Shown in pieces: positions 13,263 through 31,153 of a DNA stretch of 36,994 bases. How positions within the stretch are numbered: position 1 is the first letter of the stretch; every line of letters begins with the position of its first letter. The DNA is taken from positions 1-36,994 of the IMG/VR virus record IMGVR_UViG_3300037041_000297, one strand, 5' to 3'. Source of the stretch: a virus. The position numbers and the translations under genes were made by a program. Below the pieces are notes generated by a model. That model did not search any database, had not been told where the DNA came from, and worked only from the letters and a program-made list of their open reading frames with translations.

Positions 13263-13276
13263 GTGTTCTTCTCCTT
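13255..13276. repeat. 22-bp direct repeat at a gene junction, copy 2
   Basis: Identical to 13004-13025. On the minus strand it ends the zinc-finger gene (C-terminal KEKNT) and provides the ribosome site and ATG of the next gene. Confidence 0.85.
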
Positions 13277-15055: not shown

Positions 15056-15063
15056 AAAATACC

Positions 15064-16389: not shown

Positions 16390-16655
16390 TAGAACGGTAT
16401 ATCCGCATCATTGGCTTGTGGCTTCTGCTGCTGGGCTGGCTTGTAGTCATTAACCTTCATTGAGAAGTAGTCACCATTGGTGCCTTGCTTGGTCCAGCCA
16501 GATAGCTTGATAACAATGTCATCCTCATCTGTCTCATTCAATGCCTTCTTCAGCATCTCACGGGTGAAGGACATATCCCCACTCAGATCTGGTGACTTAG
16601 GGTTAACCTTGTTACGGGCGTAGAAGAGTGCTCCTGTGTTTGGATACTTATTCAT
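16389..16655 (-). CDS. SSB-like protein with acidic DIPF tail
   Basis: 88 residues. The body (KLSGWTKQGTNGDYFSMKV) looks like part of an OB-type strand pattern. The protein ends with a Gln/Pro-rich linker and the tip NDADIPF, the C-terminal signature that SSB proteins use to recruit partners. It lies between the annealing protein and other recombination genes. It is shorter than bacterial SSB, so it may be a minimal ssDNA-binding protein. The tail is seen; ssDNA binding is inferred. Confidence 0.65.
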   Translation of the reverse strand: MNKYPNTGALFYARNKVNPKSPDLSGDMSFTREMLKKALNETDEDDIVIKLSGWTKQGTNGDYFSMKVNDYKPAQQQKPQANDADIPF

Positions 16656-17391: not shown

Positions 17392-17606
17392 TTGGATACC
17401 TTTCTTGGGCGGCCTGGTTTAGCTAGGGCTTTACTTGCACGTTCAGCATCAGCTACAGCCTTCTCATACATAGAGTCTTCTCTAACCAGATCCATTGCTA
17501 ACTTCTCTTCTAGCTCATCCATAATCCAGGACACTTCTTTCCAAGGGGAGTTCATTAGTATCCGTTGAAGTTGTAGGTTCTGTTCTTGGTTCATCTCAAT
17601 ATTCAT
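17388..17606 (-). CDS. Hypothetical protein with AT-hook-like tail (72 aa)
   Basis: 72 residues, mostly helical and acidic, ending KPGRPRKVSK, where GRPRK resembles an AT-hook that binds the minor groove. A good AAGGAG site lies before the ATG, and the stop overlaps the annealing-protein ATG. DNA binding is possible. Not assigned to a family. Confidence 0.55.
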   Translation of the reverse strand: MNIEMNQEQNLQLQRILMNSPWKEVSWIMDELEEKLAMDLVREDSMYEKAVADAERASKALAKPGRPRKVSK

Positions 17607-17615
17607 GTTATCTCC

Positions 17616-17762
17616 TTATACGCAGGTTGTATTGCAGTTGCCAGATGTGCAGCAGGTGGTGCAAACCGTCAGCTTACCCCCAACAAAGACGCTGTTAGTG
17701 GTGCATGAGGCATACGCCATGCTTGCTATTAGAAGCATATAAACTCCTAGTATGTATTTCAT
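17616..17762 (-). CDS. Secreted Cys-rich micropeptide (48 aa)
   Basis: 48 residues, ATG 17762 overlapping the preceding stop as ATGA, ending TAA just before the next gene's AAGGAG site. It starts with a clear signal peptide (MKYILGVYMLLIASMAYA), with likely cleavage after AYA. The mature part is about 30 residues with six Cys (20, 34, 37, 38, 43, 47), rich in Thr, with VCTTCCTSGNC in the middle. It is probably a disulfide-bonded periplasmic peptide. I recall similar peptides in other aquatic phages with no known role. Confidence 0.65.
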   Translation of the reverse strand: MKYILGVYMLLIASMAYASCTTNSVFVGGKLTVCTTCCTSGNCNTTCV

Positions 17763-18028
17763 GATTTCTCCTTTGCTAACTCTTCAGCTATTAGATCGTG
17801 GCAATGTGCTATTACTTCACCCTTATTAATATCCGCCCAATTACTTCTTTTTTCTGCCGCCTGCATATACTTCACAATATATTCTTCCTTGCTGAAGTAG
17901 ATGTTCTCACCATATGTTCCAATCTTATTTAAGAACTTCTGCTCATCTGCTGTTGTATGGCTCTTGATTGCTTGCCTTACAATCATTACTGGTTTCTGCT
18001 TGGTAGGGTTTGCCGGTAGTAATTTCAT
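17759..18028 (-). CDS. Hypothetical protein (89 aa)
   Basis: 89 residues, basic N-terminus (MKLLPANPTKQKPVMIVRQA) then helical. It contains EEYIVKYMQAAEKRSNWADI and ends AEELAKEKS. ATGA-type overlaps occur on both sides, with the nuclease gene upstream and the Cys-rich peptide downstream. No family recognised. Confidence 0.55.
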   Translation of the reverse strand: MKLLPANPTKQKPVMIVRQAIKSHTTADEQKFLNKIGTYGENIYFSKEEYIVKYMQAAEKRSNWADINKGEVIAHCHDLIAEELAKEKS

Positions 18029-18897
18029 TTGCTCTCCTTGTATTGTTTAAATTGATCACAGAATGTTGAGACTGGGCAGTACTTCTCACACCTAGTCCTC
18101 TCTCCTTCTCTTACTTCTATTTCAAACGCATCACCTAAGTCCTCCAGCAGACCATAGGCTTCCTGCTTATCACCATAAAGATGCTTGGCCCTAGCTGCAC
18201 CCTTCTTCTTTATGGCATATACAGTCTGCTTCTCCCACATCTCAGCAGACGTACACTCTGGATACTTTGCCCCTGTACCGGCAGCAAAGAACCCATCATT
18301 GTGGTGCTCAAGACGTTCCTTGACGTACTGCTCCCTCTTCTCAAAGGGCCACAACTCTATATCTAAGACAGCTACAGGAGACTGTGGGTATCCCTCCTTC
18401 CTATCTACTTCCCTAGCCTGCCAGTCCCTAACTATGGCTACAATCTGTAGCTTCTTTACTGGCATACCCTTGCAACGCTCAACTAGCCATGCGTACATGT
18501 TCAGCTGACTAACCCACTCCTCCTTCTCTGCCATGACAGACCAAGCACCAGTTACCTTATAGTCAGAGACTATGATTCCATCCGGCTCAATCTCTTGCAG
18601 ATCTATAGCACCTGAGATCTTCCAATCATTCAGCTCTGTGTGTAGGCGCTCCTCTACTACATGGTTATCACCCTTGCCATGCTCTAGGATGTTATGTATA
18701 GCCGTTCCAAACAGGCTCCAGATCATCTCAGATACATCAGATGTTATGTCTGAGCCATACTTAGCGCGTAGCTGCACCAGCTGGGTGGGGGAGAGTAGTT
18801 CAGTAACGCTTATCTGTGAGTCACCCCTGCTATACTGTGGGCGGCGTATTACATTTACAAATGTTTCAGGTAGATTAAACTTGTTAGTTAGTTTCAT
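18025..18897 (-). CDS. Cas4/RecB-like PD-(D/E)XK exonuclease
   Basis: 290 residues. The RecB-nuclease motifs are in order: H68 (GTAIHNILEHG), D99 in SGAIDL, D112-Y-K114 in IVSDYKVTG, and QLNMYAWL (131-138). A C-terminal cysteine set, C270, C274 and C280 (RCEKYCPVSTFC), could bind an Fe-S cluster as in Cas4/AddB; the fourth ligand might be C141 or C215, because no N-terminal Cys is present. It is the first gene after a strong promoter and starts with GGAGGAA before ATG. With the Sak3-type protein it likely forms the phage recombination pair. There is no CRISPR array or other cas gene in the window. Confidence 0.8.
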   Translation of the reverse strand: MKLTNKFNLPETFVNVIRRPQYSRGDSQISVTELLSPTQLVQLRAKYGSDITSDVSEMIWSLFGTAIHNILEHGKGDNHVVEERLHTELNDWKISGAIDLQEIEPDGIIVSDYKVTGAWSVMAEKEEWVSQLNMYAWLVERCKGMPVKKLQIVAIVRDWQAREVDRKEGYPQSPVAVLDIELWPFEKREQYVKERLEHHNDGFFAAGTGAKYPECTSAEMWEKQTVYAIKKKGAARAKHLYGDKQEAYGLLEDLGDAFEIEVREGERTRCEKYCPVSTFCDQFKQYKESK

Positions 18898-20995: not shown

Positions 20996-21781
20996 ATGCA
21001 CATAGGCCTAAACACAATACGCATTGACTGCAACACGCAATCCAGAGAATCCATCAGCCCAGACGTTGTAGACCAGTACGCTGAGGATATGCAGGGAGGC
21101 AACATCTTCCCATCAGTCATAGTCTATTATGATGGCACGTTCTACTACCTAGTGGATGGGCACCACAGATACCACGCTGCCATGAAGATAGGTGCGCCTA
21201 GTCTGGAGTGTACGGTTGTTGATGGTACGCTGCGTGAGGCCGTCCTGTTTTCAATGACTGTTAACAGTAAGCATGGTCTTCCCAGAAGCCGCGCAGATAA
21301 GCGGTATTGCATTCTCCGTATGCTGGATGATATTGAGTATGGGGAATACAGTGATAACCACATAGCCAAGCTGTGCCATGTTGGGAATATGCTGGTCGCT
21401 GCAATTCGCGCAGAGCTTGGAAGGGCGGGGCCAGCTGTAAGAAAGTATGTTAGAGATGGAAAAGAAGTTTTGCAGAAAGTCAGGGAGAAGAAGGTTGTTG
21501 CCCCTGTTGAGGATAAAGAGACAGAGATGGAACTTCTAAGGGCTTCAGTTGTGGACCTGATGGATGACAATGCTTTGCTCAAGGATAAGATTTCTATTGG
21601 CTTGTCTGGCAGCTCTGATGAAGAGAAGGTTGCTGTAACAGAGACAATTAAAAGCCTAAGAGATGAGATTGTATTGCTCAATGTAACCATTAAGGCAATT
21701 ACTAAATCACGCGATGCATACCAGACAGAAAATGCAGAGTTGATGAAGCAAATTGCAAGAATGAAAAAAGCCAACCCTTGA
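20996..21781 (+). CDS. ParB-like protein with HTH and coiled coil
   Basis: 261 residues. The N-terminal ParB/sulfiredoxin-type domain has the signature LVDGHHRYHAAMKIG (D54-G-H-H-R58). Residues about 95-145 (SRADKRYCILRMLDD, SDNHIAKLCHVGNMLVAAIR) look like a helix-turn-helix DNA-binding segment. The rest is a coiled coil (170-258) likely to dimerise. Classical ParB proteins bind DNA sites and hydrolyse CTP; here the gene sits next to the repeat-rich region, so binding those repeats, as an initiator or regulator, is an attractive inference. No ParA partner is present. Confidence 0.7.
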   Translation: MHIGLNTIRIDCNTQSRESISPDVVDQYAEDMQGGNIFPSVIVYYDGTFYYLVDGHHRYHAAMKIGAPSLECTVVDGTLREAVLFSMTVNSKHGLPRSRADKRYCILRMLDDIEYGEYSDNHIAKLCHVGNMLVAAIRAELGRAGPAVRKYVRDGKEVLQKVREKKVVAPVEDKETEMELLRASVVDLMDDNALLKDKISIGLSGSSDEEKVAVTETIKSLRDEIVLLNVTIKAITKSRDAYQTENAELMKQIARMKKANP

Positions 21782-21803: not shown

Positions 21804-21823
21804 ATCTTGCTGCTAAGCAAGGT
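21804..21823. repeat. Perfect-stem hairpin repeat, copy 1 (before the helicase gene)
   Basis: ATCTTGCT-GCTA-AGCAAGGT folds into an 8-bp stem (one T-G pair) with a 4-base loop, three bases before the GGAGAA ribosome site of the helicase. 19 of 20 bases match 31096-31115. Confidence 0.75.
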
Positions 21824-21837
21824 AGCAGGAGAACAGC

Positions 21838-23346
21838 GTGGCAGAATTAAGTTTATATGATTACCAGAATGAGGCTATTGAGGAGCTGAGGAAGGGCTTT
21901 GCTAATGGTAAGAGGGCGCAGGTCTTAGTCTCCCCTACTGGGTCAGGCAAGACTGAAATGGCAATTGCTTTGATGGCTGCTACTGCTGCCAAGGGTAACA
22001 AGACTGCCATGCTGCTAGATCGCATAGTGTTATGTAACCAGACCAGTGCGCGGCTTGATAGATATGGGCTAGATCATGGCGTATATCAGGCAGATCACTG
22101 GCGGAATAGACCTTATGAAAAGATACAGGTATGTTCTGCTCAGACTATGGAGGCGCTGGGGGTTATGCCTGATGTGACCCTGCTGATTATTGATGAGTGC
22201 CACACAATAAGAACTAAGACTGCCGCCTACATTAAGTCCAACCTCAAGTTAAAGGTAATAGGTTTGACAGCCACGCCATTCACTAAGGGCATGGGTAAAA
22301 TCTATGACAACGTGGTCAGCACTGTAACCACCAAGCAATTGGTAGCCAGGGAAGTGCTTGTCCCTCTCAGAGTATTCATAGCCAAAGAGATAGATATGGA
22401 GGGGGCTAAGAAGTCTGGGGGGGAATGGACTAACAGTGAGGCCACAGCGCGGGGCAAGAAAATCACAGGTGATGTGGTAGCTGAGTGGATCAAGGTAACT
22501 CACAAGATATTTGGCAGGCCAAGGAAGACGCTGGTGTTTTGTTCTGGCACTGAGCATGGAGTGGATCTGGCGCGTAAGTTCCAAGAGCAGGGTTATAACT
22601 TTATAGCTACGTCACACAAAGACCCAGATGAGTGGCGTAAAGAAATCCTGCGGGAGTTCGCTGAACCTGACTCCAAGATACATGGCCTGATAGCAACTGA
22701 CCTGTATACAAAAGGCCTAGACATCCCTGATGTGATGATAGGCGTGAGTGCGCGTCCATTTTCTAAGTCATTCAGCAGCCACGTTCAGCAGATGGGGCGT
22801 ATTACTAGGGGGAATCCTGGAAGTGATAAATCTTTTGCAGTCTGGCTAGATCATAGCGGCAACTATCTCAGGTTCAAGGATGACTGGGATGAGGTGTACC
22901 ACAATGGCGTGGATGAGTTGGATGATGGCAAGGAGAAGACCAAGACAGAGCCTACAGAGTTTGAGAAGGAGGCAGCTAAGTGTCCTAAGTGCCATGCTCT
23001 ATGGGCCAAGGGGTCTGATGCCTGTTACAACTGCGGATTTGTTAGGGAAAAGCAGAACACAGTTTACTCAGTGAATGGCATATTAACTGAGCTACAGGCA
23101 CCCGTTATTGTGAAGTGTGACTGGGATAAGCAGGAGTTCTGGTCAGCTATGGTGTGGAATATGCAGCACAAGGGTTGGAAGCAGGGCAGGGCAGCTAAGC
23201 TATTCAAGGATAGGTTTAGTGAGTATCAGGCCCCAGACTTAAAGAATATACCTGTTAAACCTAGTGCGCGTATTGATCTGTTTGCGAAAAACAATTTAAT
23301 TGCGTGGCAGATTAAGCAGAAGTATTTGCGTGGGCATGGCAGATGA
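21838..23346 (+). CDS. SF2 DNA helicase (DEAD/DEAH-type) with C-terminal zinc ribbon
   Basis: 502 residues from GTG 21838 with GGAGAA upstream. Motifs: Q-like YDYQNEAI (7-14), Walker A PTGSGKT (33-39), Walker B DECH (119-122), motif III LTATP (143-147), motif VI QQMGRITRG (317-325). After the helicase core, C382, C385, C396 and C399 (CPKC ... CYNC) form a zinc ribbon, and residues about 405-500 are an extra domain. This layout occurs in phage replicative or origin-opening helicases. The stop overlaps the primase ATG, so helicase and primase are probably made together. Confidence 0.85.
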   Translation: MAELSLYDYQNEAIEELRKGFANGKRAQVLVSPTGSGKTEMAIALMAATAAKGNKTAMLLDRIVLCNQTSARLDRYGLDHGVYQADHWRNRPYEKIQVCSAQTMEALGVMPDVTLLIIDECHTIRTKTAAYIKSNLKLKVIGLTATPFTKGMGKIYDNVVSTVTTKQLVAREVLVPLRVFIAKEIDMEGAKKSGGEWTNSEATARGKKITGDVVAEWIKVTHKIFGRPRKTLVFCSGTEHGVDLARKFQEQGYNFIATSHKDPDEWRKEILREFAEPDSKIHGLIATDLYTKGLDIPDVMIGVSARPFSKSFSSHVQQMGRITRGNPGSDKSFAVWLDHSGNYLRFKDDWDEVYHNGVDELDDGKEKTKTEPTEFEKEAAKCPKCHALWAKGSDACYNCGFVREKQNTVYSVNGILTELQAPVIVKCDWDKQEFWSAMVWNMQHKGWKQGRAAKLFKDRFSEYQAPDLKNIPVKPSARIDLFAKNNLIAWQIKQKYLRGHGR

Positions 23347-24173
23347 CCTTTGTAGACTTTTGCAGATTGCACGGTGTGATTATAAGTCACACCCCCAAGG
23401 TAGGTAACTGGGCTAGGTATCCAACAGAAGACCACCCTCATAGCAGGAATGGGGCTGTGAAGTTCATGCTTACACATGGATTTGTACAAAACCACGCCAC
23501 TGAGGATACCGTATCTGTATGGCAGCCAGATGTAGCCCCCACTATCAGGGCCGGTGATGTTATAGCCATAAAGAATGCCAGTTCTGATATAGCTAAGAAG
23601 CAGGGACAGGCAGCTAACAAGGCGGCAGTCCTTTTAAAACAGTCCAGGCTTGCCTATCACCCCTACCTACGCAAGAAGGGGTTTCCAGAGGATGAGGGCA
23701 ACGTAATAGATACAGATGAGGGGTTGGTACTACTTATACCAATGCGTGTCTCTGGGGCGCTTGTAGGGCTTCAGCAGGTCAGTCCTACAGGGGAAAAGCG
23801 TTTCCTGTATGGGCAGAGGTCAAATGGTGCGGAATTTGTATTTGATAATAGGGGAGTTAATATTCTGTGTGAGGGCTACGCTACCGCCCTATCTCTGAGG
23901 CTTGCCCTTAAAACTATGAAGAGGCGCTACACTTTGCACGTTTGCTTCAGTGCGTCAAACCTAGTGAACATTGCTAGCCAGCTGGAGGGGGGATTTGTTA
24001 TTGCTGACAATGATCTCAGCGGTGTGGGGGAGGCCAGTGCCAAGAAGACAGGCTGGCCTTATTGGATGAGTGAATCAGTTGGTCAGGACTTTAATGACTT
24101 CCACCTAGCGCGTGGACTATTTGCCGCCACTCAAGGCCTGACCACGCTGTTTATGCCGCCACGCCCTTTTTGA
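23343..24173 (+). CDS. Toprim-domain primase
   Basis: 276 residues. The C-terminal half carries the Toprim catalytic pattern: E177-GYATA (NILCEGYATALSLRLAL), D222-N-D224 (GGFVIADNDLSGVG), and a further acidic D249-FND. The N-terminal half (YHPYLRKKGFPEDEGNVID, VLLIPMRVSGALVGLQQVSP) matches the region preceding Toprim_3 in plasmid and phage primases. No N-terminal zinc finger is visible, so it is shorter than DnaG. It starts in an ATGA overlap with the helicase and likely makes primers for host polymerase. Its 3' end overlaps the convergent gene by 23 bases. Confidence 0.8.
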   Translation: MTFVDFCRLHGVIISHTPKVGNWARYPTEDHPHSRNGAVKFMLTHGFVQNHATEDTVSVWQPDVAPTIRAGDVIAIKNASSDIAKKQGQAANKAAVLLKQSRLAYHPYLRKKGFPEDEGNVIDTDEGLVLLIPMRVSGALVGLQQVSPTGEKRFLYGQRSNGAEFVFDNRGVNILCEGYATALSLRLALKTMKRRYTLHVCFSASNLVNIASQLEGGFVIADNDLSGVGEASAKKTGWPYWMSESVGQDFNDFHLARGLFAATQGLTTLFMPPRPF

Positions 24174-24411
24174 TTTGCTTGAGCATCTTCACTAGAGTTT
24201 TATTGACTACAACAGCATCACAGTAGCAGTCAGGCATAGAGCAAGCGCACCCCTTTAATGGGTATTCAATGCCTGTAACTAGGTCGGTCACAGTTGCTTT
24301 CCACTTCATTCCACGCTTAATTTTTAGTGCATCTGCATCAGAGATCAGCAGCTTGATTCTCTCATCACTGTTATCAGAAGTCTTAGGCGTGCAGATATTA
24401 GTACCCTTCAT
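24151..24411 (-). CDS. Hypothetical protein with Cys cluster (86 aa), end of the accessory train
   Basis: 86 residues from ATG 24411, chosen for the GGAG site and overlap with the preceding gene. A Cys-rich stretch CACSMPDCYC lies near the middle, possibly metal-binding, followed by a basic helix (NKTLVKMLKQIKKG). Its end overlaps the primase end tail-to-tail. Not recognised. Confidence 0.55.
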   Translation of the reverse strand: MKGTNICTPKTSDNSDERIKLLISDADALKIKRGMKWKATVTDLVTGIEYPLKGCACSMPDCYCDAVVVNKTLVKMLKQIKKGVAA

Positions 24412-24616
24412 TTTTCTTCTCCAGTAGTTTGCGTTCTGTTTCAATAAAATGCGGAGTCTCCTCCTCCACCAGCACTATGATGGTTTCAATTGCATCCCTG
24501 TCATCATAGTCAAAGGCGGCATGGAGGGCTTTGTTAAGGGCATTCATCTCAGTGTAGCCCTCAACACGCACCACAAATTCCACCCTCTTTTGCAGCTTGA
24601 TTCGATAATGTGGCAT
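24398..24616 (-). CDS. Accessory mini-protein, probable member of the beta-beta-alpha paralog set (72 aa)
   Basis: 72 residues starting MPHYRIKLQKRVEFVVRVEG, two predicted strands, then a helix YTEMNALNKALHAAF, and an acidic end. The strand-strand-helix layout with an Ala in the first helix is shared with several neighbours (24981, 25312, 26485, 26691). Start and stop overlap adjacent genes. Function unknown. Confidence 0.6.
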   Translation of the reverse strand: MPHYRIKLQKRVEFVVRVEGYTEMNALNKALHAAFDYDDRDAIETIIVLVEEETPHFIETERKLLEKKNEGY

Positions 24617-24984
24617 CAGCTTTCCAGTTTATGCACGGTTATATTAGTCAAACTGTACCTGTAGCGGCGTTTCTCTCCAGTGGTTCTGATCTCGCCAGCA
24701 GCCTTCAATCGGGTCAACGCCTTAGAAACCAGGTTTTCAGTTTGGTAATCCACGCCCACTGGCAGTATTTTTTGCTTGATTAAAAAACTGGTAGATGCCG
24801 GATTCTTTTTAAGGAATGTCAGAATTTGAGAAGAGATGCTAACCCCTTTCGGGGTCATATCCTTCTTGTACAGTTCTGATAGGTGCATACTGTGAGTGGA
24901 GGCCTCCATCAGGTCCGCTGCTATCCCATCCAACGTGCCTATGCCCGTCATATCAGCGTATTGACCACCTACAGGCCACCTCAT
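24616..24984 (-). CDS. Winged-helix-like DNA-binding protein
   Basis: 122 residues. Residues about 50-115 (SSQILTFLKKNPASTSFLIK, LVSKALTRLKAAGEIRT, GEKRRYRYSL) give helix-helix-recognition helix-wing, as in small winged-helix regulators. The N-terminal part is unassigned. It could regulate this operon. ATGA/TGATG overlaps occur on both sides. Confidence 0.6.
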   Translation of the reverse strand: MRWPVGGQYADMTGIGTLDGIAADLMEASTHSMHLSELYKKDMTPKGVSISSQILTFLKKNPASTSFLIKQKILPVGVDYQTENLVSKALTRLKAAGEIRTTGEKRRYRYSLTNITVHKLES

Positions 24985-25148
24985 GCTTCCTCCTTGGCAT
25001 CAAACCCCATATATTCACAGGTAACTTCATCGCCCTCACATTCAGGCTGGATATTTCCACATTCAAATAACTCCCAAGCCTCAGCTTCACTTGTTGCTTT
25101 AATCTTGGTCTTCTCGTATACCGTTTGCCAGAATATAAATTCCTTCAT
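24981..25148 (-). CDS. Acidic mini-protein, paralog family (55 aa)
   Basis: 55 residues: MKEFIFWQTVYEKTKIKATS, then EAEAWELFECGNIQPE and an acidic tail ending KEEA. Clearly related to the gene at 25312-25461 (shared I-x-A ... EAWE-x-F-x-x-G). The final codons GAG GAA GCA double as the ribosome site of the next gene (ATGA overlap). Confidence 0.65.
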   Translation of the reverse strand: MKEFIFWQTVYEKTKIKATSEAEAWELFECGNIQPECEGDEVTCEYMGFDAKEEA

Positions 25149-25315
25149 GCTGCCTCCTCAAGTTCTACCTCAAGAATATTAAAGTTATCCCCGTCATATG
25201 CCTCCCAGTTAACGCCGCCTTCATCTGCCATGCGCCTAGCATCCTCTGGATTCTCTGCCTGTACTGTTGCGCAGGAATAGACCGTCTCTGCTGCGTGTAC
25301 GATATATGTCTTCAT
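25145..25315 (-). CDS. Acidic mini-protein, paralog-like (56 aa)
   Basis: 56 residues: MKTYIVHAAETVYSCATVQA, ENPEDARRMADEGGVNWEAY, acidic end ELEEAA. It shares the strand-strand-helix plan and E-(D/E)-A helix start with its neighbours, though with no Trp in the helix. The C-terminal EEAA is encoded by the GAGGAGGCAGC ribosome site of the following gene. Confidence 0.65.
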   Translation of the reverse strand: MKTYIVHAAETVYSCATVQAENPEDARRMADEGGVNWEAYDGDNFNILEVELEEAA

Positions 25316-25461
25316 GATTCCTCCTCTGTCATTTCTGCATCTTCATAATCACATTCTTTGTGGCTTACGTCCCCGCTATTGAATATCTCCCATGCCTCCT
25401 CCTTTGTCTCTGCCTCAATAGGCGTGTACTCTGTCATTTTTTGAGTAAATACATATTTCAT
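25312..25461 (-). CDS. Acidic mini-protein, paralog family (49 aa)
   Basis: 49 residues: MKYVFTQKMTEYTPIEAETK then EEAWEIFNSGDVSHKECDYE. Paralog of the gene at 24981-25148. It ends EEES, encoded by GAGGAGGAATC, the ribosome site of the next gene, in an ATGA overlap. Role unknown. Confidence 0.65.
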   Translation of the reverse strand: MKYVFTQKMTEYTPIEAETKEEAWEIFNSGDVSHKECDYEDAEMTEEES

Positions 25462-25470
25462 GCTGCCTCC

Positions 25471-25914
25471 TTAAATAAAAACTGCGCTAGGGTGTTTCCT
25501 CAATATCTTAAACTTTAATAGTTCTGTATCGCCATTTTGCTTCACGCTCATAAAAGTACCTTTCTTGCAGTCATTAGTAGTAAATACAATAGAGGTCTTC
25601 TTCATCTTTGCTACACGCTTCTGCTTATTGTGAGCGTTAATAAGTTCATCCACTGCCATATCAATGGTCACGGGGATCAGGCCATCAGGGTATATATCGC
25701 GCCATGATTCATCCTCAATTGGGATGGGGGGCATTGCATTGACTATGCCTACAAATTCCGTAGCCGCAGCCGGACTAATAAAATCATAGTTAAATACACC
25801 GCCATTACCGCCATCCATAACAAATGCAATCTTTTTGCCGTTGAGGTACAGGTCAAGGTTAAATCCCTCGCCTTCCATACCTTGAAATAGTTTTAGCTTT
25901 TTAATAGTTAGCAT
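25471..25914 (-). CDS. Conserved hypothetical protein (147 aa)
   Basis: 147 residues. The N-terminal half is strand-rich, LKLFQGMEGEGFNLDLYLNG then KKIAFVMDGGNGGVFNYDF, a pattern I recall in other aquatic phages with no function. The C-terminal half contains a helix around AVDELINAHNKQKRVAKMKK and further strands. One of the larger members of this train, probably soluble. ATG 25914 overlaps the preceding stop by 7 bases. Confidence 0.6.
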   Translation of the reverse strand: MLTIKKLKLFQGMEGEGFNLDLYLNGKKIAFVMDGGNGGVFNYDFISPAAATEFVGIVNAMPPIPIEDESWRDIYPDGLIPVTIDMAVDELINAHNKQKRVAKMKKTSIVFTTNDCKKGTFMSVKQNGDTELLKFKILRKHPSAVFI

Positions 25915-26132
25915 GATTCCCCCGTAATTGAGACTGTTATCCCTTCTGGTATCAATATTGCGCTGTGATCGCTATAGTCTGAAGAAGTCCACATAACACC
26001 TACCTCCAAAGCTTTTAGGCCTTCTATATCTTCCAGCCTATAGCCGTTGTCCTCAGTGATGTCTGTCTCTGGGCAGACTCTTAGCCCTGTCTTGCAGAAG
26101 CTATAACCCCAAGTCATTAAGTACATTCTCAT
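25908..26132 (-). CDS. Hypothetical protein (74 aa)
   Basis: 74 residues, MRMYLMTWGYSFCKTGLRVC ... strand-rich, with EVGVMWTSSDYSDHSAILIP near the end. ATGA overlap upstream. No family recognised. Confidence 0.55.
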   Translation of the reverse strand: MRMYLMTWGYSFCKTGLRVCPETDITEDNGYRLEDIEGLKALEVGVMWTSSDYSDHSAILIPEGITVSITGESC

Positions 26133-26404
26133 GATTCCTCCTCCAGACGTTCACGCCATATATCTACATGGTGATTAATAGTGTCCCAACTCACCCCATT
26201 ATTGCAGTCATGCCTATACTTTAATTCTGCCAAAATGCCCTGTGCATCTTCATCACTCATTGGGGTGCAGTCTCCGGCACAATCCTGTACGTCAGAAATA
26301 TGCCAGTGCAGTGAAGCCCAATCTGGTGAAAATGCGCGGTTCAATTCATACTGTGCCTTCTCATCTGTTACGTCATCAGGTACGTCTAAAATTATTGCTC
26401 TCAT
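26129..26404 (-). CDS. Hypothetical acidic protein (91 aa)
   Basis: 91 residues, acidic: a strand MRAIILDVPDDV, then DWASLHWHISDVQDC, and a C-terminal helix QGILAELKYRHDCNNG ... DIWRERLEEES. The EEES end again supplies the ribosome site for the next gene. Four Cys/His-rich positions could be metal ligands, but no motif is recognised. Confidence 0.55.
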   Translation of the reverse strand: MRAIILDVPDDVTDEKAQYELNRAFSPDWASLHWHISDVQDCAGDCTPMSDEDAQGILAELKYRHDCNNGVSWDTINHHVDIWRERLEEES

Positions 26405-26475
26405 GATTTATCCCTTAAAAAAATCCACGCTATAAAAACTACTATCAGGGTGTACGCTACTTCATCTTCACACAT
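26401..26475 (-). CDS. Membrane micropeptide (24 aa)
   Basis: 24 residues: acidic start MCEDEVAY, a hydrophobic stretch TLIVVFIAWIFL and a basic end RDKS. Negative-outside/positive-inside charges fit a single membrane pass. AAGGATCAATT precedes the ATG, and the stop overlaps the next start as ATGA, which argues for a real gene despite the length. Confidence 0.45.
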   Translation of the reverse strand: MCEDEVAYTLIVVFIAWIFLRDKS

Positions 26476-26484
26476 AATTGATCC

Positions 26485-26694
26485 TTAATAACTTGATAGG
26501 GTTGCAGCTTCATATTCATCTTCTAAAGTAAAATAAGGTATTGGCACACTTTCCCCATCTTCAATAACTTGAATTGTTATACCTTCTTCCATTTCTGTGT
26601 ATTCAGTGGAACGCTGCTTAATCCACGCATCCTCCTCATTTTCTGCTTCAATCTCAACATACTGAATGACACGCTGCTCAAAATAGAATCTCAT
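26485..26694 (-). CDS. Acidic mini-protein, paralog family (69 aa)
   Basis: 69 residues: MRFYFEQRVIQYVEIEAENE, EDAWIKQRSTEYTEMEEG, then ITIQVIEDGESVPIPYFTLE. The second half aligns with the next gene upstream (26691-26885) around (I/V)QVIED ... PYFTL, and the first half with the 49-55 residue paralogs. An adjacent duplicated pair. Confidence 0.65.
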   Translation of the reverse strand: MRFYFEQRVIQYVEIEAENEEDAWIKQRSTEYTEMEEGITIQVIEDGESVPIPYFTLEDEYEAATLSSY

Positions 26695-26885
26695 GCCGCA
26701 CCCCCCAGAGTAAAATACGGCATGGACATGGGTGCATCTTCAATAACTTGCACACTTATGCCGCTGTCATAGACTACATCCTGTTCATTATCACGCCGGA
26801 GAAATTCTGCATCTGCCTGTTCTTGTGTTTCCGCTTTTATAACGGTTTCAAATGTCATGGTGCAGCTAAAAATGTATGTGTTCAT
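26691..26885 (-). CDS. Acidic mini-protein, paralog family (64 aa)
   Basis: 64 residues from ATG 26885 (preceded by GGGAGGC and overlapping the previous stop). MNTYIFSCTMTFETVIKAET, a helix QEQADAEFLRRDNE, then SVQVIEDAPMSMPYFTLGG. Paralog of the following gene at 26485-26694. Function unknown. Confidence 0.65.
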   Translation of the reverse strand: MNTYIFSCTMTFETVIKAETQEQADAEFLRRDNEQDVVYDSGISVQVIEDAPMSMPYFTLGGAA

Positions 26886-27133
26886 GATGCCTCCCATTCC
26901 TTTCTCATCTTGCGAAATTCTGCCTTGATTGTGGATAGAAGATGATCCCGATTAGACATTAATGTAGACCCTCTGCGCTTCAGCTTTTCGCATACTTGAG
27001 TGCCATCGGCTCTGCGGACGTATCCCCATTCACCTGTCCCCACTGAAAATATTTCTGCCCTGGCAATCCCAAACTCATCCATGTATCCCAGATATACAGA
27101 CCCATCTGCGAACTGCGTAAATTTTGTTCTCAT
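26882..27133 (-). CDS. Hypothetical protein (83 aa)
   Basis: 83 residues. The N-terminal half is strand-rich (FADGSVYLGYMDEFGIARAE, TGEWGYVRRADGTQ) and the C-terminal half is a basic helix (DHLLSTIKAEFRKMRKEW). It ends WEAS, encoded within the GGGAGGC ribosome site of the next gene. A possible nucleic-acid-binding protein, judged only by charge. Confidence 0.55.
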   Translation of the reverse strand: MRTKFTQFADGSVYLGYMDEFGIARAEIFSVGTGEWGYVRRADGTQVCEKLKRRGSTLMSNRDHLLSTIKAEFRKMRKEWEAS

Positions 27134-27318
27134 GCTGCCTCCTTGATGCTGGTTATTCTGAAATCTGGTTCAGCGTCATAGTTCTCACGGGTGCGGTCGG
27201 TATTGTGATATTGATGAAACGCATCCTGTGCAGCATCATGGATGTTGCCAGAATCGGTTTTAAATAAATGAGTAATTCTAAAAGTAATCACTTCCTCAAT
27301 TTCCACTTCATATTTCAT
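27130..27318 (-). CDS. Mini-protein, possible distant member of the paralog family (62 aa)
   Basis: 62 residues: MKYEVEIEEVITFRITHLFK, a helix NIHDAAQDAFHQYHN, then DFRITSIKEAA. The strand-strand-helix-strand plan matches the family, with low identity. GGGAGACA lies before the ATG, and the KEAA end overlaps the next ribosome site. Confidence 0.55.
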   Translation of the reverse strand: MKYEVEIEEVITFRITHLFKTDSGNIHDAAQDAFHQYHNTDRTRENYDAEPDFRITSIKEAA

Positions 27319-27333
27319 ATTGTCTCCCGTAAG

Positions 27334-27531
27334 TTAATTGTTTTGTTCCTTGTATCTCCTGCGTACCTCATCCACCCTGTCACTCCTAACTACGCCGTAA
27401 AGAAAGTTTGTCTTTGCTGCAAATTTACGCGCCTTTGAGTAGCTATCAAATCGCTCCCCATAACACGCTGGTTGAAGGTGTGTGTGTCTGCCGTTGGAGC
27501 AGACTTGCAAGACCGTATAATCCATGTTCAT
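27334..27531 (-). CDS. Hypothetical basic protein (65 aa)
   Basis: 65 residues from ATG 27531 (GGAGGAAGC upstream, ATGA overlap). MNMDYTVLQVCSNGRHTHLQ, then GERFDSYSKARKFAAKTNFL and a basic end DEVRRRYKEQNN. Not recognised. Confidence 0.55.
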   Translation of the reverse strand: MNMDYTVLQVCSNGRHTHLQPACYGERFDSYSKARKFAAKTNFLYGVVRSDRVDEVRRRYKEQNN

Positions 27532-27887
27532 GCTTCCTCCATCCACGTTGCCGGCAGTTCCACGCCTTCATTCTCTGCCTGTTCGCGTATATATCTCTCA
27601 TCTTCCCCGTTGTATTCATCTGGCGATTCTTGCAGCAAATCAGATAAAAATCCTTCTACTCCGTGATATGGTGTTGAATGGAATATCTCAAGGCTTCCAG
27701 TGTCACTGTTTATCATTGCACATTGATAATCCGCATTGACTAGGAAAACAAAGCCGCTATTCTGATTAAATGCAGGCTTCACTTCATCATCGGAAAAGTT
27801 ATCTGGTAAAGGCTTGGACAATATTTCACACAGCATTTTTCTCTCTCTTGAGCCAAAATCGCTTATATTCTCAGTGTAAAAACTCAT
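27528..27887 (-). CDS. Hypothetical acidic protein (119 aa)
   Basis: 119 residues, acidic. Strand-rich centre (GFVFLVNADYQCAMINSDTG) flanked by helices; the acidic end reads REQAENEGVELPATWMEEA. It is preceded by a 5' region carrying the first intercistronic hairpin (27931-27959). Function unknown. Confidence 0.55.
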   Translation of the reverse strand: MSFYTENISDFGSRERKMLCEILSKPLPDNFSDDEVKPAFNQNSGFVFLVNADYQCAMINSDTGSLEIFHSTPYHGVEGFLSDLLQESPDEYNGEDERYIREQAENEGVELPATWMEEA

Positions 27888-27930
27888 GGTTTATATCCTT
27901 TTGCACGTTGCCGGATCTGCCGGATCAGTT

Positions 27931-27959
27931 TATTTCCCTATGGGACTAAACCCATAAGG
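27931..27959. repeat. Intercistronic hairpin, copy 1
   Basis: Minus-strand CCTTATGGG-TTTAGT-CCCATAGGG folds into a 9-bp stem (one wobble) with a 6-base loop, followed by AAATA. It lies 20 bases after one stop and 44 bases before the next ATG. The stem and flank are repeated at 28376-28404. Confidence 0.8.
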
Positions 27960-27978
27960 CTATAAACTAATTTATTCT

Positions 27979-28089
27979 TTATAAGGGATAGTCACGCAAT
28001 ACCCAATTGGGTTTCCTCCCTAGTTTTGCAATATTTTCAAAATGTTGATTTTTGCCGCAATTTGTTTTCATCATTTCCTGGCTAGTCAT
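27979..28089 (-). CDS. Possible small protein (36 aa)
   Basis: 36 residues from ATG 28089 with AAGGGATAAATT upstream, partly made by the end of the preceding gene: MTSQEMMKTNCGKNQHFENI ... WVLRDYPL. It contains the DNA palindrome ACCCAATTGGGT. The good ribosome site and its fit between two genes support it; the short length keeps confidence low. Otherwise 27888-28092 would hold only leader sequence. Confidence 0.4.
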   Translation of the reverse strand: MTSQEMMKTNCGKNQHFENIAKLGRKPNWVLRDYPL

Positions 28090-28092
28090 AAT

Positions 28093-28347
28093 TTATCCCT
28101 TGAATGAGGCAAAAGAGCGCACGGGAGAGTCATATACTGCGGGTTTTAATTCTTTTACTTCCACTGGTTTGCCTAACTCATTCATGCGCGTTATGAAACG
28201 GGAATAATCACAATCTTCCTCCAGGTATACGTCGTCTCCCTTTTGGTATGAATAATGAGAGATTTTATCTAGGATGCCTAGGTCTATTAATTCTTGTCTT
28301 TTAACTTGCAGCCATCCATGCCCTGGATCGGTGTGAAATAAGTACAT
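28093..28347 (-). CDS. Conserved phage small protein with DPGHGWL motif (84 aa)
   Basis: 84 residues from ATG 28347, chosen because GAGGAAAATATC precedes it; the open frame extends further upstream, but that part overlaps the second hairpin. MYLFHTDPGHGWLQVKRQEL, then ISHYSYQKGDDVYLEEDCD. I recognise this as a widely distributed phage protein of unknown function. It is the first gene after hairpin copy 2. Confidence 0.65.
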   Translation of the reverse strand: MYLFHTDPGHGWLQVKRQELIDLGILDKISHYSYQKGDDVYLEEDCDYSRFITRMNELGKPVEVKELKPAVYDSPVRSFASFKG

Positions 28348-28375
28348 GATATTTTCCTCTTGGTAGTTTATAAAG

Positions 28376-28404
28376 TATTTCCCTATGGGATCGCTCCCAT
28401 AAGG
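28376..28404. repeat. Intercistronic hairpin, copy 2
   Basis: Minus-strand CCTTATGGG-AGCGAT-CCCATAGGG followed by AAATA. Stem and flanks are identical to copy 1 while the loop differs. It lies 8 bases after the preceding stop and 29 bases before the next ATG. Confidence 0.8.
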
Positions 28405-28411
28405 TAAAACT

Positions 28412-28594
28412 CTATGAATGGGTATACCCGTCTGGTTCAATACCTATCCACATATCGCACCATCTAAGCATTAAATAACCATAACTATATTGCACGGTTC
28501 TTCTAAATTGCAGATAAGTTAAACCTTGACTGTCCTGGGTGTACTTTCGTTTAATGGCTTGTTGTTGTTGTTTTGTTATCTTTTTATTAATCAT
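28412..28594 (-). CDS. Conserved phage small protein (60 aa)
   Basis: 60 residues: basic start MINKKITKQQQQAIKRKYTQ, then GLTYLQFRRTVQ and an end with WIGIEPDGYTHS. I recall similar proteins in other phages, with no known role. ATG coupled to the preceding stop. Confidence 0.6.
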   Translation of the reverse strand: MINKKITKQQQQAIKRKYTQDSQGLTYLQFRRTVQYSYGYLMLRWCDMWIGIEPDGYTHS

Positions 28595-28764
28595 GCCATT
28601 TCCCCTATATCTTCTAGGCTTGTGATTAGTCCGTCAAAATCCTCTGAACTTCCCAGGATACCCGCCAGGGTAAAAACAGTGTCCAGGTCAACGCCCATAT
28701 CATCAGCAAGCGTTTCTAGGTAGTCCCGTCTTGATGTATAGCCTTCATCGGTGTATATACTCAT
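28591..28764 (-). CDS. Conserved phage small protein (57 aa)
   Basis: 57 acidic residues: YTSRRDYLETLADDMGVDLD, TVFTLAGILGSSEDFDGLIT. All-helical, typical of a small family often seen in phage accessory operons. ATGA overlaps on both sides. Function unknown. Confidence 0.6.
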   Translation of the reverse strand: MSIYTDEGYTSRRDYLETLADDMGVDLDTVFTLAGILGSSEDFDGLITSLEDIGEMA

Positions 28765-28928
28765 GGCTTCCTCTGTAGTATTTGATTAATCTGATTAATC
28801 TCAATTTGCGCGTATTTTTTGGCATCTGATACAGTCACCAATGGATCGCCATATAAAACGCGAACAATGCCGTGTTTGTTGATTGCTGGTAGATAGTTAA
28901 ATCCGCTTTTCACATATGTTGCTTTCAT
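28761..28928 (-). CDS. Hypothetical basic mini-protein (55 aa)
   Basis: 55 residues: MKATYVKSGFNYLPAINKHG, then IVRVLYGDPLVTVSDAKKYA and a Gln/Ile helix. ATGA overlaps with both neighbours, and a ribosome site lies in AGAGGAAATCAGC before the ATG. Confidence 0.55.
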   Translation of the reverse strand: MKATYVKSGFNYLPAINKHGIVRVLYGDPLVTVSDAKKYAQIEINQINQILQRKP

Positions 28929-29239
28929 GCTGATTTCCTCTGATTAAGTGAAGCCGCTATTCTGGCCAATTGCTCCCAGTCCGCCGGAGTTAGTTCATCT
29001 TGCTTGTGCTTAGCTATTTCTTGCCAGTTAACCTCATCTAGGAAGGCCAGGGCGTAGTCCAGGGCAATTCCTCCCGTGTCTGGACAGCTATTCTCTACGG
29101 CAAGGATAGCTGTTTCTTTTAGGTATTCAGCAAGTTCATAATCTTCATAAGGTGTATCAGCATTAATTCTAAATCCGTCAATCAACTCTAAATTGACGCG
29201 CCAAGTGGCATAATTTGACCATCCGTTATATGTGCTCAT
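28925..29239 (-). CDS. Conserved phage protein with NGWSNYATW motif (104 aa)
   Basis: 104 residues. The N-terminal NGWSNYATWRVNLELIDG is the hallmark of a widespread phage family of unknown function. The rest is helical and acidic (AEYLKETAILAVENSC, WEQLARIAASLNQ). The ATG overlaps the stop of the third membrane micropeptide. Confidence 0.7.
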   Translation of the reverse strand: MSTYNGWSNYATWRVNLELIDGFRINADTPYEDYELAEYLKETAILAVENSCPDTGGIALDYALAFLDEVNWQEIAKHKQDELTPADWEQLARIAASLNQRKSA

Positions 29240-29307
29240 GATTTACTCCGTATTGATAAGATTAAAAGGATAAAAGAAAGCATTAATGGGAAAAGGATAT
29301 AAAACAT
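29236..29307 (-). CDS. Membrane micropeptide 3 (23 aa)
   Basis: 23 residues: MFYILFPLMLSFILLILSIR then SKS. One hydrophobic pass with a basic end. It starts in a TAATG overlap with micropeptide 2, whose last codons give the GAGGTAAATA ribosome site, and ends in an ATGA overlap with the next gene. Confidence 0.5.
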   Translation of the reverse strand: MFYILFPLMLSFILLILSIRSKS

Positions 29308-29399
29308 TATTTACCTCGCGTGATAAAGAACATCAATGACATGAAGCAGGCTTGAAATAAGGCGATACAGATAAAATAATCAAATATGTCATTAATCAT
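29307..29399 (-). CDS. Membrane micropeptide 2 (30 aa)
   Basis: 30 residues: MINDIFDYFICIALFQACFM then SLMFFITRGK. A single hydrophobic pass, acidic start and basic RGK end. Start and stop are both in TAATG overlaps, with the identical junction GAGGTAAATAATG at each. Confidence 0.5.
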   Translation of the reverse strand: MINDIFDYFICIALFQACFMSLMFFITRGK

Positions 29400-29509
29400 T
29401 ATTTACCTCTTAGACAATGGGCAAGCGGTATAAATACTGCCGCAGCGAACATATAGGCCAGGGCGGCAAGTGATAAATAATAGGCTGATAACGCTATTGC
29501 GTAGGTCAT
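29399..29509 (-). CDS. Membrane micropeptide 1 (36 aa)
   Basis: 36 residues: MTYAIALSAYYLSLAALAYM then FAAAVFIPLAHCLRGK. One long or two very short hydrophobic segments, with a basic end. AAAGGATAACC precedes the ATG. Confidence 0.55.
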   Translation of the reverse strand: MTYAIALSAYYLSLAALAYMFAAAVFIPLAHCLRGK

Positions 29510-29524
29510 GATGGTTATCCTTTA
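29507..29524. repeat. 18-bp junction repeat, copy 1
   Basis: CATGATGGTTATCCTTTA, identical to 29717-29734 and similar to 30001-30019. On the minus strand it is a ribosome site plus start codon (AAAGGATAACC ... ATG). Confidence 0.8.
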
Positions 29525-29719
29525 GTATGTAAAGCCGATATAAACAATGGTGCTACCTTTTAGGTATAGGCTGCGATTTATATTCATGGTATCGGTTAGG
29601 CAGAATGTTTTTGTAGAGCGATCATAAGATTCCCTTGTAAATACTGATTTAGAGTTAGGCTTGCGAATAACAAAGTCACCAGGCTTTACATCGCTTAGCT
29701 TGCAGGGTATTGAGTACAT
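29522..29719 (-). CDS. Hypothetical protein (65 aa)
   Basis: 65 residues, strand-rich and basic: MYSIPCKLSDVKPGDFVIRK, DTMNINRSLYLKGSTIVYIG. It resembles a small SH3/OB-like barrel in pattern only. AAAGGATAACC lies before the ATG. Confidence 0.55.
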   Translation of the reverse strand: MYSIPCKLSDVKPGDFVIRKPNSKSVFTRESYDRSTKTFCLTDTMNINRSLYLKGSTIVYIGFTY

Positions 29720-29734
29720 GATGGTTATCCTTTA
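29717..29734. repeat. 18-bp junction repeat, copy 2
   Basis: Identical to 29507-29524. It supplies the ribosome site and start codon of the gene at 29522-29719. Confidence 0.8.
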
Positions 29735-29745
29735 TAAGTAGTGGT

Positions 29746-30003
29746 TTATGCTTCAATTCCAATTGATGAAAAATACTCTATTGTCTCTGGCGCGTGATAA
29801 TCTGAACTTAGCAATGAGCGGATTGAGCCAATCCAATACACTAGATACATCGGATTTTCTTCCAGTTGCCATATATTGCTATATCTAAACCCGGACTCGT
29901 TGATGGTGGTGACAGCGTTATTCTCGCCAGACAAAATAATATCTCTGATAGCGCCGGTGCTATCATGTATCGCTGCTTCCAATTGCTGAACTGTAGGCAT
30001 CAT
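29746..30003 (-). CDS. Hypothetical protein, first gene of the accessory train (85 aa)
   Basis: 85 residues: MMPTVQQLEAAIHDSTGAIR, GFRYSNIWQLEENPMYLVYW, ending in a helix YHAPETIEYFSSIGIEA. Two adjacent ATGs are possible starts. It follows the strong minus-strand promoter, so it is probably the earliest made protein of the train. Not recognised. Confidence 0.6.
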   Translation of the reverse strand: MMPTVQQLEAAIHDSTGAIRDIILSGENNAVTTINESGFRYSNIWQLEENPMYLVYWIGSIRSLLSSDYHAPETIEYFSSIGIEA

Positions 30004-30042: not shown

Positions 30043-30070
30043 ATTATCCCCCATCTATTGAGAGAGTCAA
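30043..30070 (-). promoter_or_regulatory. Promoter of the accessory train
   Basis: Minus-strand TTGACT (30070-30065, 5 of 6) with a 16-base spacer to GATAAT (30048-30043, 5 of 6). The first gene starts 40 bases downstream behind AAAGGATAACC. Confidence 0.65.
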
Positions 30071-30126
30071 TAGGTTAGTCAATAGATTATGAAATATATA
30101 TTGATATTCTAGGGGGTCAGTCAATG
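30065..30126. repeat. AGTCAATAG repeats over the -35 of the accessory promoter
   Basis: AGTCAATAG at 30065-30073 and 30077-30085 (12-base period), with AGTCAATG at 30119-30126. The first covers the -35 box; the array may be stacked -35 elements or operator sites. Confidence 0.6.
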
Positions 30127-30256
30127 CTATCCCATGCAAAAGTATTAAAACGCAGCCAGAGCGATTCTAGCGCGATCCAGGGCAGAATGAGGCTGGGCGT
30201 GGCTTCCAGGGTATGTGAGTGGTCACTATCATGGAATGGCGCATGAATAAAGGAAG

Positions 30257-30277
30257 TTGTTCCCTATTTGTTCCCTA
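30257..30277. repeat. TTGTTCCCTA direct repeats upstream of terminase
   Basis: TTGTTCCCTA at 30257-30266 and 30268-30277, 11-base period, followed by a -10-like TATATT at 30283-30288. The TTGTTCC core matches the iteron-like units at 20269-20306, so one protein might bind both places. Confidence 0.55.
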
Positions 30278-30326
30278 TGTGTTATATTCGCGGCATGAGT
30301 TTAATAGCGTAGCGAGACAGTCTAAA

Positions 30327-31061
30327 ATGGCAAAGTTATCTAGGGCATCAATAAAGGATAAATTAAAAGGTAATGCTTTACCTTCACCCGCACAAATGAT
30401 TAAACGTGGATCGCTTACTCATAAGCAGATGGAATTCAGTAAAGGTATCGCCCTGGAAGGTCTAACAGGTGCAGATGCTTACAGGAAAGCCTACAAATCT
30501 AAAGCTGCTCCCAATGTAGTTGCCAACAATGCCAGCAAGCTGAAAACTAAACATGCTGGTATTCAATCTACCATCGCTGCGATGGAAGCGGCTAAGATGG
30601 CGGAATCCTATAATACCGCTGCATCCTTGCGCTCGCTGGTTATCAATACCTTGGTGCAATGCGTCACTGATCCTGACATTAAACCTACAGCGAGAATAGC
30701 GGCTTGCAGAACATTGGGCCAAGTAACAGAGGTCGCAGCATTCACCACAAGGTCAGAGACATTAGTTATAAAAGATAGTGGTGAGCTTAGACTACAAATA
30801 CTAGATGAGCTTAGATCAATGATGCTTAGCTCTAATCAAACCATAACAGACATTGATACAGACTCACTATTGGCTGAATTAGTACCAGAATCAGCAATTG
30901 AAGAGGGTACAGTACCCCAATCACCCCTTTTTGATGAAGAGACAGTGCCTGGTTCTCTACATATTATTCCCCACAAACAAAGTATTCCCCCAGAGATTTG
31001 TACAACTCCACCTTCATCTGACTCAGAACGTGTACAGAAAAGGGCCCCCTATGTTAAATAA
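30327..31061 (+). CDS. terS: Terminase small subunit
   Basis: 244 residues from ATG 30327 (MAKLSRASIKDKLKGN); the frame is open back to 30219, but that part overlaps promoter-like repeats. LTHKQMEFSKGIALEGLTGA, then DAYRKAYKSKAAPNVVANNA is the HTH region of small terminases, which bind pac or cos DNA. A central helical region (residues about 75-155) probably oligomerises. The C-terminal third is Pro/Ser/Glu-rich and disordered. It heads the packaging module, followed shortly by the large terminase. The ribosome site is weak. Confidence 0.75.
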   Translation: MAKLSRASIKDKLKGNALPSPAQMIKRGSLTHKQMEFSKGIALEGLTGADAYRKAYKSKAAPNVVANNASKLKTKHAGIQSTIAAMEAAKMAESYNTAASLRSLVINTLVQCVTDPDIKPTARIAACRTLGQVTEVAAFTTRSETLVIKDSGELRLQILDELRSMMLSSNQTITDIDTDSLLAELVPESAIEEGTVPQSPLFDEETVPGSLHIIPHKQSIPPEICTTPPSSDSERVQKRAPYVK

Positions 31062-31095
31062 ATTGGTAGGGTGGGGGGGGTATATAAAAAATTCT

Positions 31096-31115
31096 ATCTT
31101 GCTGCTAAGCAAGAT
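31096..31115. repeat. Perfect-stem hairpin repeat, copy 2 (after terS)
   Basis: ATCTTGCT-GCTA-AGCAAGAT, a perfect 8-bp stem with a 4-base loop, in the gap after terS. 19 of 20 bases match 21804-21823. An 8-G run lies just before it (31073-31080). Confidence 0.75.
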
Positions 31116-31153
31116 GATACCAAATTCCTCAATGAAATCAATGGTAGGGTAAA

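What the first reader, a model, noticed from the sequence alone, without database searches (positions are those of the whole stretch)
24151..30003. A train of about 27 tiny, mutually overlapping accessory genes
Nearly 6 kb on the minus strand is filled with proteins of 23-147 residues, read from one strong promoter and mostly joined by ATGA, TAATG or short overlaps. Few have recognisable domains. Such dense operons in other phages host early host-takeover and anti-defence factors; that role here is an inference.
Basis: partly seen in the sequence, partly recalled or inferred. Interest (0 to 1): 0.75.

Follow-up and report, generated by a model that had tools for sequence, protein, structure and literature searches.

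The report
Hypervariable early-type phage small-gene island
In a family of uncultured phages, the same spot between a primase-like gene and the DNA-packaging genes holds a backwards-running train of 8-27 tiny genes that are real but are swapped almost completely even between near-identical phages, a pattern typical of genes used against the host or its defences, though their function is not shown.

Summary
On the minus strand, 24151-30003 carries 27 ATG-started ORFs of 23-147 aa; 5,624 of 5,853 nt are coding and 18 of 26 junctions overlap (13 are ATGA). Twenty-four have relatives. Nearly all with orthologs in close relatives show low dN/dS, even 24-, 30- and 36-aa ones. The locus is a fixed address: 67 distinct relatives have such a train, 2.1-6.3 kb, between the Toprim and TerS genes. 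Contents turn over fast: 978 genes, 315 families, median pairwise Jaccard 0.06. A relative 94.7% identical across TerL keeps only five of the window's first 18 genes. Homology blocks end at gene edges and order is 94% concordant, so whole genes are gained and lost in place. A near-consensus sigma-70 promoter, overlaid by operator-like repeats, lies about 40-50 nt upstream of the first gene here and in many relatives. They mostly lack U-tracts and lack promoters, so they are neither typical terminators nor T4 PeSL cassettes. The early, anti-defence role remains inference: acidic proteins, genes shared with unrelated phages, but no known anti-defence protein in the window.

The parts
30043..30070 (-). 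sigma-70-type promoter TTGACT-N16-GATAAT, 39 nt upstream of gene 1
   Evidence: position and boxes matched by TTGACA-N16/17-TAATAT-like promoters in many relatives
30055..30085 (.). three operator-like heptamers (TCAATAG/CTATTGA) starting at 30055, 30067, 30079, 12 nt apart, overlapping the -35 box
   Evidence: relatives carry TATTGCA/TGCAATA at the same place, 6.9 per kb against 0.27 per kb overall
29746..30003 (-). gene 1, 85 aa
   Evidence: 46% homolog, also promoter-proximal, in an unrelated phage
29522..29719 (-). gene 2, 65 aa
   Evidence: 80% in L002, dN/dS 0.06 with L009
29399..29509 (-). gene 3, 36 aa, membrane-like
   Evidence: dN/dS 0.01-0.09 in four relatives
29307..29399 (-). gene 4, 30 aa, membrane-like
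   Evidence: dN/dS 0.03 with L005
29236..29307 (-). gene 5, 23 aa, membrane-like
   Evidence: homologs in 18 held loci; dN/dS uninformative
28925..29239 (-). gene 6, 104 aa, DUF7249-like, acidic
   Evidence: Pfam E 2.9e-5, 25.4 bits, below cut-off 27
28761..28928 (-). gene 7, 55 aa, no homolog
   Evidence: ORF only
28591..28764 (-). gene 8, 57 aa, acidic; in 25 of 67 islands and in unrelated phages
28412..28594 (-). gene 9, 60 aa
   Evidence: dN/dS 0.12 with L005
28381..28404 (-). intercistronic hairpin 1, 9-bp stem, 7 nt after the TAG stop of gene 9, before gene 10
   Evidence: covariation; model R1 E 3.3e-11 (in training set)
28093..28347 (-). gene 10, 84 aa; in 24 of 67 islands
   Evidence: confident model pLDDT 93.4, no PDB relative
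27979..28089 (-). gene 11, 36 aa (start uncertain), no homolog
   Evidence: ORF only
27936..27959 (-). intercistronic hairpin 2, before gene 12
   Evidence: shared with gene 12 as one block in L002
27528..27887 (-). gene 12, 119 aa, net charge -18
   Evidence: dN/dS 0.15; homologs in HTVC034P, BcepSaruman, virus Drs3
27334..27531 (-). gene 13, 65 aa; order with gene 12 swapped in L005
27130..27318 (-). gene 14, 62 aa
   Evidence: dN/dS 0.03
26882..27133 (-). gene 15, 83 aa
   Evidence: one weak homolog
26691..26885 (-). gene 16, 64 aa, acidic paralog family
26485..26694 (-). gene 17, 69 aa, acidic paralog family
26401..26475 (-). gene 18, 24 aa, membrane-like
   Evidence: dN/dS 0.05 with L005
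26129..26404 (-). gene 19, 91 aa, acidic; in 16 of 67 islands
25908..26132 (-). gene 20, 74 aa, no convincing homolog
   Evidence: ORF only
25471..25914 (-). gene 21, 147 aa, phrog_17767 (unknown)
   Evidence: PHROG E 3.6e-11; dN/dS 0.16-0.27
25312..25461 (-). gene 22, 49 aa, acidic paralog family
25145..25315 (-). gene 23, 56 aa, acidic paralog family
   Evidence: phrog_9642 E 2.4e-4
24981..25148 (-). gene 24, 55 aa, acidic paralog family
   Evidence: dN/dS 0.15 with L008
24616..24984 (-). gene 25, 122 aa, possible winged-helix regulator
   Evidence: phrog_1687 MarR E 1.9e-4, PaaX E 0.0038 below cut-off; low-confidence model
24398..24616 (-). gene 26, 72 aa
   Evidence: dN/dS 0.03 with L005
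24151..24411 (-). gene 27, 86 aa, last gene
   Evidence: dN/dS 0.04-0.13

Best explanation
This is a hypervariable accessory-gene island of a lytic-type tailed phage, fixed between the Toprim and TerS genes and read backwards from one, probably regulated, host-type (sigma-70) promoter. Shown by sequence comparison: most of the genes are real, the address is fixed, whole genes are gained and lost in place, and the larger spacers carry conserved hairpins. Inferred: one long transcript is made early by host RNA polymerase; ATGA and short overlaps couple translation; hairpins just behind some stop codons cap or separate cistron groups on the mRNA. The products, many very acidic and some single-helix membrane-like, most likely act on host processes or defences, with different phages carrying different sets for different hosts. 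Gene exchange probably uses short shared start/RBS sequences, perhaps helped by the phage's Sak-type annealing protein (inferred).
For: Real genes: dN/dS, homologs. Fixed address in 67 distinct islands, minus-strand ORF coverage above plus-strand in 66. Turnover: 315 families among 978 genes, median Jaccard 0.056, order concordance 0.938; L002 flanks 94.7% identical with few shared island genes. Homology blocks end within 15 nt of a gene edge in 84% of cases against 23% expected. Promoter and operator-like repeats. Hairpins. Acidic proteins: 7 of 27 at or below -0.15 charge per residue, 0 of 35 elsewhere in the window. Cargo shared with unrelated phages. Sak-type annealing protein in the genome.
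Against: No window protein matches a known anti-defence or takeover family. Among 99 family representatives across relatives only single hits point that way (a DNA methyltransferase, DUF6884/DpdC-like), and DpdC is itself a defence protein. Timing and operon unity are not testable here. The promoter in the window is a pattern match. Adjacent-gene order is partly conserved, so some genes may be ordinary replication or metabolism helpers.
Confidence: 0.6

Rival explanations
1. The small genes are mainly neutral or transient passengers (an ORFanage): gained and lost by illegitimate recombination, with no shared host-takeover role.
For: Very high turnover, 152 singletons among 315 families; no functional domains for most; loss of such a region in cyanophage S-PM2 was tolerated and even favoured in the laboratory (PMC4503421).
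Against: Purifying selection on most genes with orthologs; fixed address and, in many relatives, fixed promoter position; genes shared over large phylogenetic distances.
Confidence: 0.2
2. The hairpins are intrinsic terminators or attenuators that split the train into separate transcripts with promoters of their own, as in T4 PeSL cassettes.
For: Stem-loops are non-random and dispersed; a few gaps do show terminator-like U-tracts.
Against: Only 10 of 65 hairpins have 5 or more T in the next 9 nt; promoter scores in hairpin gaps are close to shuffled controls (7.81 against 7.61).
Confidence: 0.12
3. The hairpins are recombination sites (attC- or REP-like) that move cassettes of small genes.
For: The same hairpin sequence precedes different genes in L005 and L002; stop codon and flank TAGAGTTTT are shared between copies.
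Against: Adjacency across hairpin junctions is more conserved (0.76) than across other junctions (0.44-0.59); gene-edge breakpoints occur throughout, also where no hairpin lies; hairpins also occur between structural genes.
Confidence: 0.08

Closest known systems
T4-type hyperplastic regions with PeSL promoter/stem-loop cassettes (Arbiol et al. 2010, Comeau et al. 2014; known here through PMC4503421 and general knowledge, originals not held)
   Same: Variable clusters of small accessory genes, host-type early promoter, dispersed intergenic stem-loops
   Different: Unrelated phage group; promoter at the head of the train rather than in each cassette; hairpins carry no promoter and mostly no U-tract; hairpin junctions are not where adjacency breaks
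Cyanophage S-PM2 ORFanage (PMC4503421)
   Same: A contiguous run of orphan small genes behind a host-like early promoter, bounded by conserved genes
   Different: Here the locus is at the same address in 67 relatives and most genes with orthologs are under purifying selection
Early anti-defence gene clusters of archaeal viruses under conserved regulatory sequences (PMC11065993), and acr-aca operons
   Same: Small genes under a conserved strong promoter with operator-like elements; possible small DNA-binding regulator in the operon (gene 25)
   Different: Tailed phage of unknown, presumably bacterial, host; no known Acr, Aca or other anti-defence homolog found

Membership tests
T4 PeSL cassettes | intergenic stem-loop present in several dispersed copies | tested here: met
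T4 PeSL cassettes | early promoter inside the cassette | tested here: not met
   best promoter score 7.81 in hairpin gaps, 7.78 other gaps, 7.61 shuffled
T4 PeSL cassettes | stem-loop acts as terminator (U-tract) | tested here: not met
   5 or more T in 9 nt after only 10 of 65 hairpins
T4 PeSL cassettes | cassettes mark the sites of gene shuffling | tested here: not met
   adjacency more conserved across hairpins
phage early / anti-defence gene cluster | variable small genes at a fixed genomic address | tested here: met
phage early / anti-defence gene cluster | host-type promoter at the head | tested here: met
   sequence evidence only:
phage early / anti-defence gene cluster | contains a known anti-defence protein | tested here: not met
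   no such hit for the window proteins scanned against Pfam and/or PHROGs
phage early / anti-defence gene cluster | transcribed immediately after infection | not testable with these tools
   needs an infected host
acr-aca type operon | DNA-binding autoregulator encoded in the operon | tested here: inconclusive
   gene 25 weak MarR/PaaX similarity; model pLDDT 56.7
DpnD-PcfM family (PF14207), genes 16, 17, 22, 23, 24 | profile similarity to the family | tested here: inconclusive
   no direct Pfam hit; hhalign to a family in the islands taken as DpnD-like, probability 90, 27 columns

The most novel reading that the evidence does not exclude
The hairpins behind stop codons and the leader hairpin of the island transcript form a post-transcriptional insulation or control system of this phage group, recognised by a host RNase or a phage RNA-binding protein, which lets small genes be inserted or replaced without disturbing expression of their neighbours.
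Probability: 0.25. Interest if true: 0.65.

Novelty: new variant of a known kind. Interest (0 to 1): 0.5.

Why it matters
The locus can be collected from relatives by its flanking genes alone: 978 small genes in 315 families were gathered here, most without a known domain. If the early-island reading is right, this is a rich, address-defined source of new host-takeover and anti-defence proteins. The covarying hairpins give a testable handle on how phages keep dense operons expressed while swapping genes.

Tried and rejected
Nucleotide search of the island in named phages: no match. Rfam: no match in the window and four relatives. Named TerL relatives (023Pt_psg01, DSL-LC04, HTVC027P) do not show the same locus. 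An iterated HMM of the paralog family drifted into genes 19 and 25 and was discarded. Hairpins as terminators, PeSL cassettes or shuffling sites: tested and not supported. Hairpins as an island-only feature: rejected, since 8 of 20 structural-side gaps hold one against 1.5 expected from mononucleotide shuffles; but hairpin model R1 hits only islands, one or two sites each, in the window's clade, and leader model R2 hits the island leaders plus three weak matches (E 0.02 or more). Fold search for gene 10: three viral matches at E below 0.001 without function, no PDB relative. Gene 25 fold: too uncertain to search. Host identity was not determined, and the record, classed as linear, is probably incomplete.
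Full report
What is there. The window is a 36,994-base virus record from IMG/VR. Its TerL is at most 54% identical to named phages, the nearest being 023Pt_psg01, DSL-LC04 and Pelagibacter phage HTVC027P, whose corresponding region is organised differently. Between the Toprim gene (23343-24173, +) and the TerS-like gene (30219-31061, +) lie 27 minus-strand ORFs of 23-147 aa, all with ATG starts. They cover 5,624 of 5,853 nt, and 18 of 26 junctions overlap, 13 of them as ATGA.

Are they genes? Codon comparison with L005, L086, L009, L008 and L006 gives dN/dS below about 0.3 for nearly every gene with an ortholog, including the 24-, 30- and 36-aa ones. The 23-aa gene 5 is too short to tell, and values of 0.35-0.62 arise where paralogs were paired. 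Homologs exist for 23 of 27 in held loci and for gene 1 elsewhere. Genes 7, 11 and 20 rest on ORF and start signals alone.

A fixed address with changing contents. Relatives were found by TerL and by the helicase gene. In 86 islands (the window and 85 loci with both anchors), reduced to 67 distinct ones, the interval is 2.1-6.3 kb with 79-98% minus-strand ORF coverage, higher than the plus strand in all but L156, which is GC-rich and ambiguous. A coverage-based caller, run on the minus strand only, gives 978 genes, median 66 aa, in 315 families, 152 of them singletons; 181 of 911 junctions are exactly -4. Median gene-content Jaccard between islands is 0.056, yet shared genes keep their relative order in 93.8% of comparisons. 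The closest relative by TerL, L002 (99%), is 94.7% identical over 6 kb of flank but keeps only genes 2, 12, 14, 16 and 18 of the window's first 18, plus part of gene 19 where its contig ends. Homology blocks end within 15 nt of a gene edge in 84% of 97 ends against 23% expected (the relatives are not independent). So whole genes are gained, lost or replaced in place, with occasional rearrangement: genes 12 and 13 are swapped in L005, gene 10 is moved in L006 and L008. The most widespread families sit in 43 and 40 of 67 islands and are absent from the window; the second is always the last gene.

Promoter and operator-like repeats. In the window TTGACT-N16-GATAAT ends 39 nt before gene 1. Many relatives have TTGACA-N16/17-TAATAT-like boxes about 40-50 nt upstream of the first gene. 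Heptamers TATTGCA/TGCAATA are 26 times denser there than in the loci overall; the window instead has three CTATTGA/TCAATAG copies 12 nt apart across the -35 box. Regulation is an inference from these repeats. Twenty relatives have a leader hairpin between promoter and first gene with strong compensatory change (14 cells against 3.2 in shuffles); it was found once per record in three of four larger records and is not evident in the window.

Intercistronic hairpins. Of 173 gaps of 30 nt or more, 64 hold a stem of 7 bp or more against 7.8 in dinucleotide shuffles. The median start is 7 nt after the stop codon, and the median end 28 nt before the next start. The window has two, at 28381-28404 and 27936-27959. 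The window-type hairpin shows three pairs with compensatory change and no broken pair among eight sequences; a second type shows five pairs with change on both sides (there the arms were aligned by hand with loops masked). These sets are small and the sequences related, so the counts are supportive rather than conclusive. Model R1 finds the window type only in islands of the window's clade, and a scan of 2.9 million viral contigs returned 12 stretches. They are mostly not intrinsic terminators and carry no promoter, so they differ from T4 promoter early stem-loops as cited in PMC4503421. Gene adjacency is better conserved across them than elsewhere, which argues against a role as shuffling sites. 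Hairpins also occur between structural genes, so they are a habit of the genome rather than of the island alone. Their role as mRNA caps, processing sites or insulators is inferred from position.

What the proteins may do. Few have known domains. Gene 6 resembles DUF7249 below cut-off, gene 25 weakly resembles MarR/PaaX winged-helix proteins. Genes 16, 17, 22, 23 and 24 are acidic paralogs, with an N-terminal similarity to a family in the islands that I take to be DpnD/PcfM-like. Seven of 27 are at or below -0.15 charge per residue against 0 of 35 other window proteins, which suggests but does not show DNA mimicry. Genes 8, 10 and 12 have relatives in unrelated phages, including large Burkholderia phages and an archaeal virus; gene 10 also in a few plasmids. 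A gene 1 homolog is promoter-proximal between a primase and a terminase gene in an unrelated phage (gene identities there are my reading of the ORFs). Among 99 family representatives, single members match a DNA methyltransferase, NinX, DUF6884/DpdC-like and a peptidase. None of this proves an anti-defence role.

Verdict. It is a new variant of a known kind: a hypervariable early-type accessory island, with unusual promoter-less, mostly U-tract-less hairpins.

Noticed in passing
window 21804-21823 and 31095-31116: Two near-identical plus-strand hairpins (ATCTTGCTGCTAAGCAAGRT), one just before the helicase gene and one before the gene at 31154.
   Followed up: partly
L181:3001-3261: Homolog of gene 1 (46%) directly behind a near-consensus TTGACA promoter, between a primase-like and a terminase-like gene, in an unrelated phage.
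   Followed up: partly
window 2894-9751: A 2,285-aa protein with matches to giant phage proteins, among them a DarB-like antirestriction family (phrog_10089) and phrog_14770.
   Followed up: no
window 11432-18897: A second minus-strand cluster with a sigma-70 region 4 protein, a Sak-type annealing protein, a PD-(D/E)XK nuclease and a PAPS-reductase-like protein.
   Followed up: no
window 20996-21781: ParB-like protein (phrog_1033, E 1.7e-18).
   Followed up: no
L161 from 2660: In phage FtMidnight the gene 8 homolog is followed by a GC-rich inverted repeat and about 930 nt without annotated genes.
   Followed up: partly
first gaps of the L029, L057, L089, L093 and L090 islands: A further hairpin type followed at once by a second palindrome-like stretch (GATTATCACTTGATAATC and variants) near the start of the train.
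   Followed up: no
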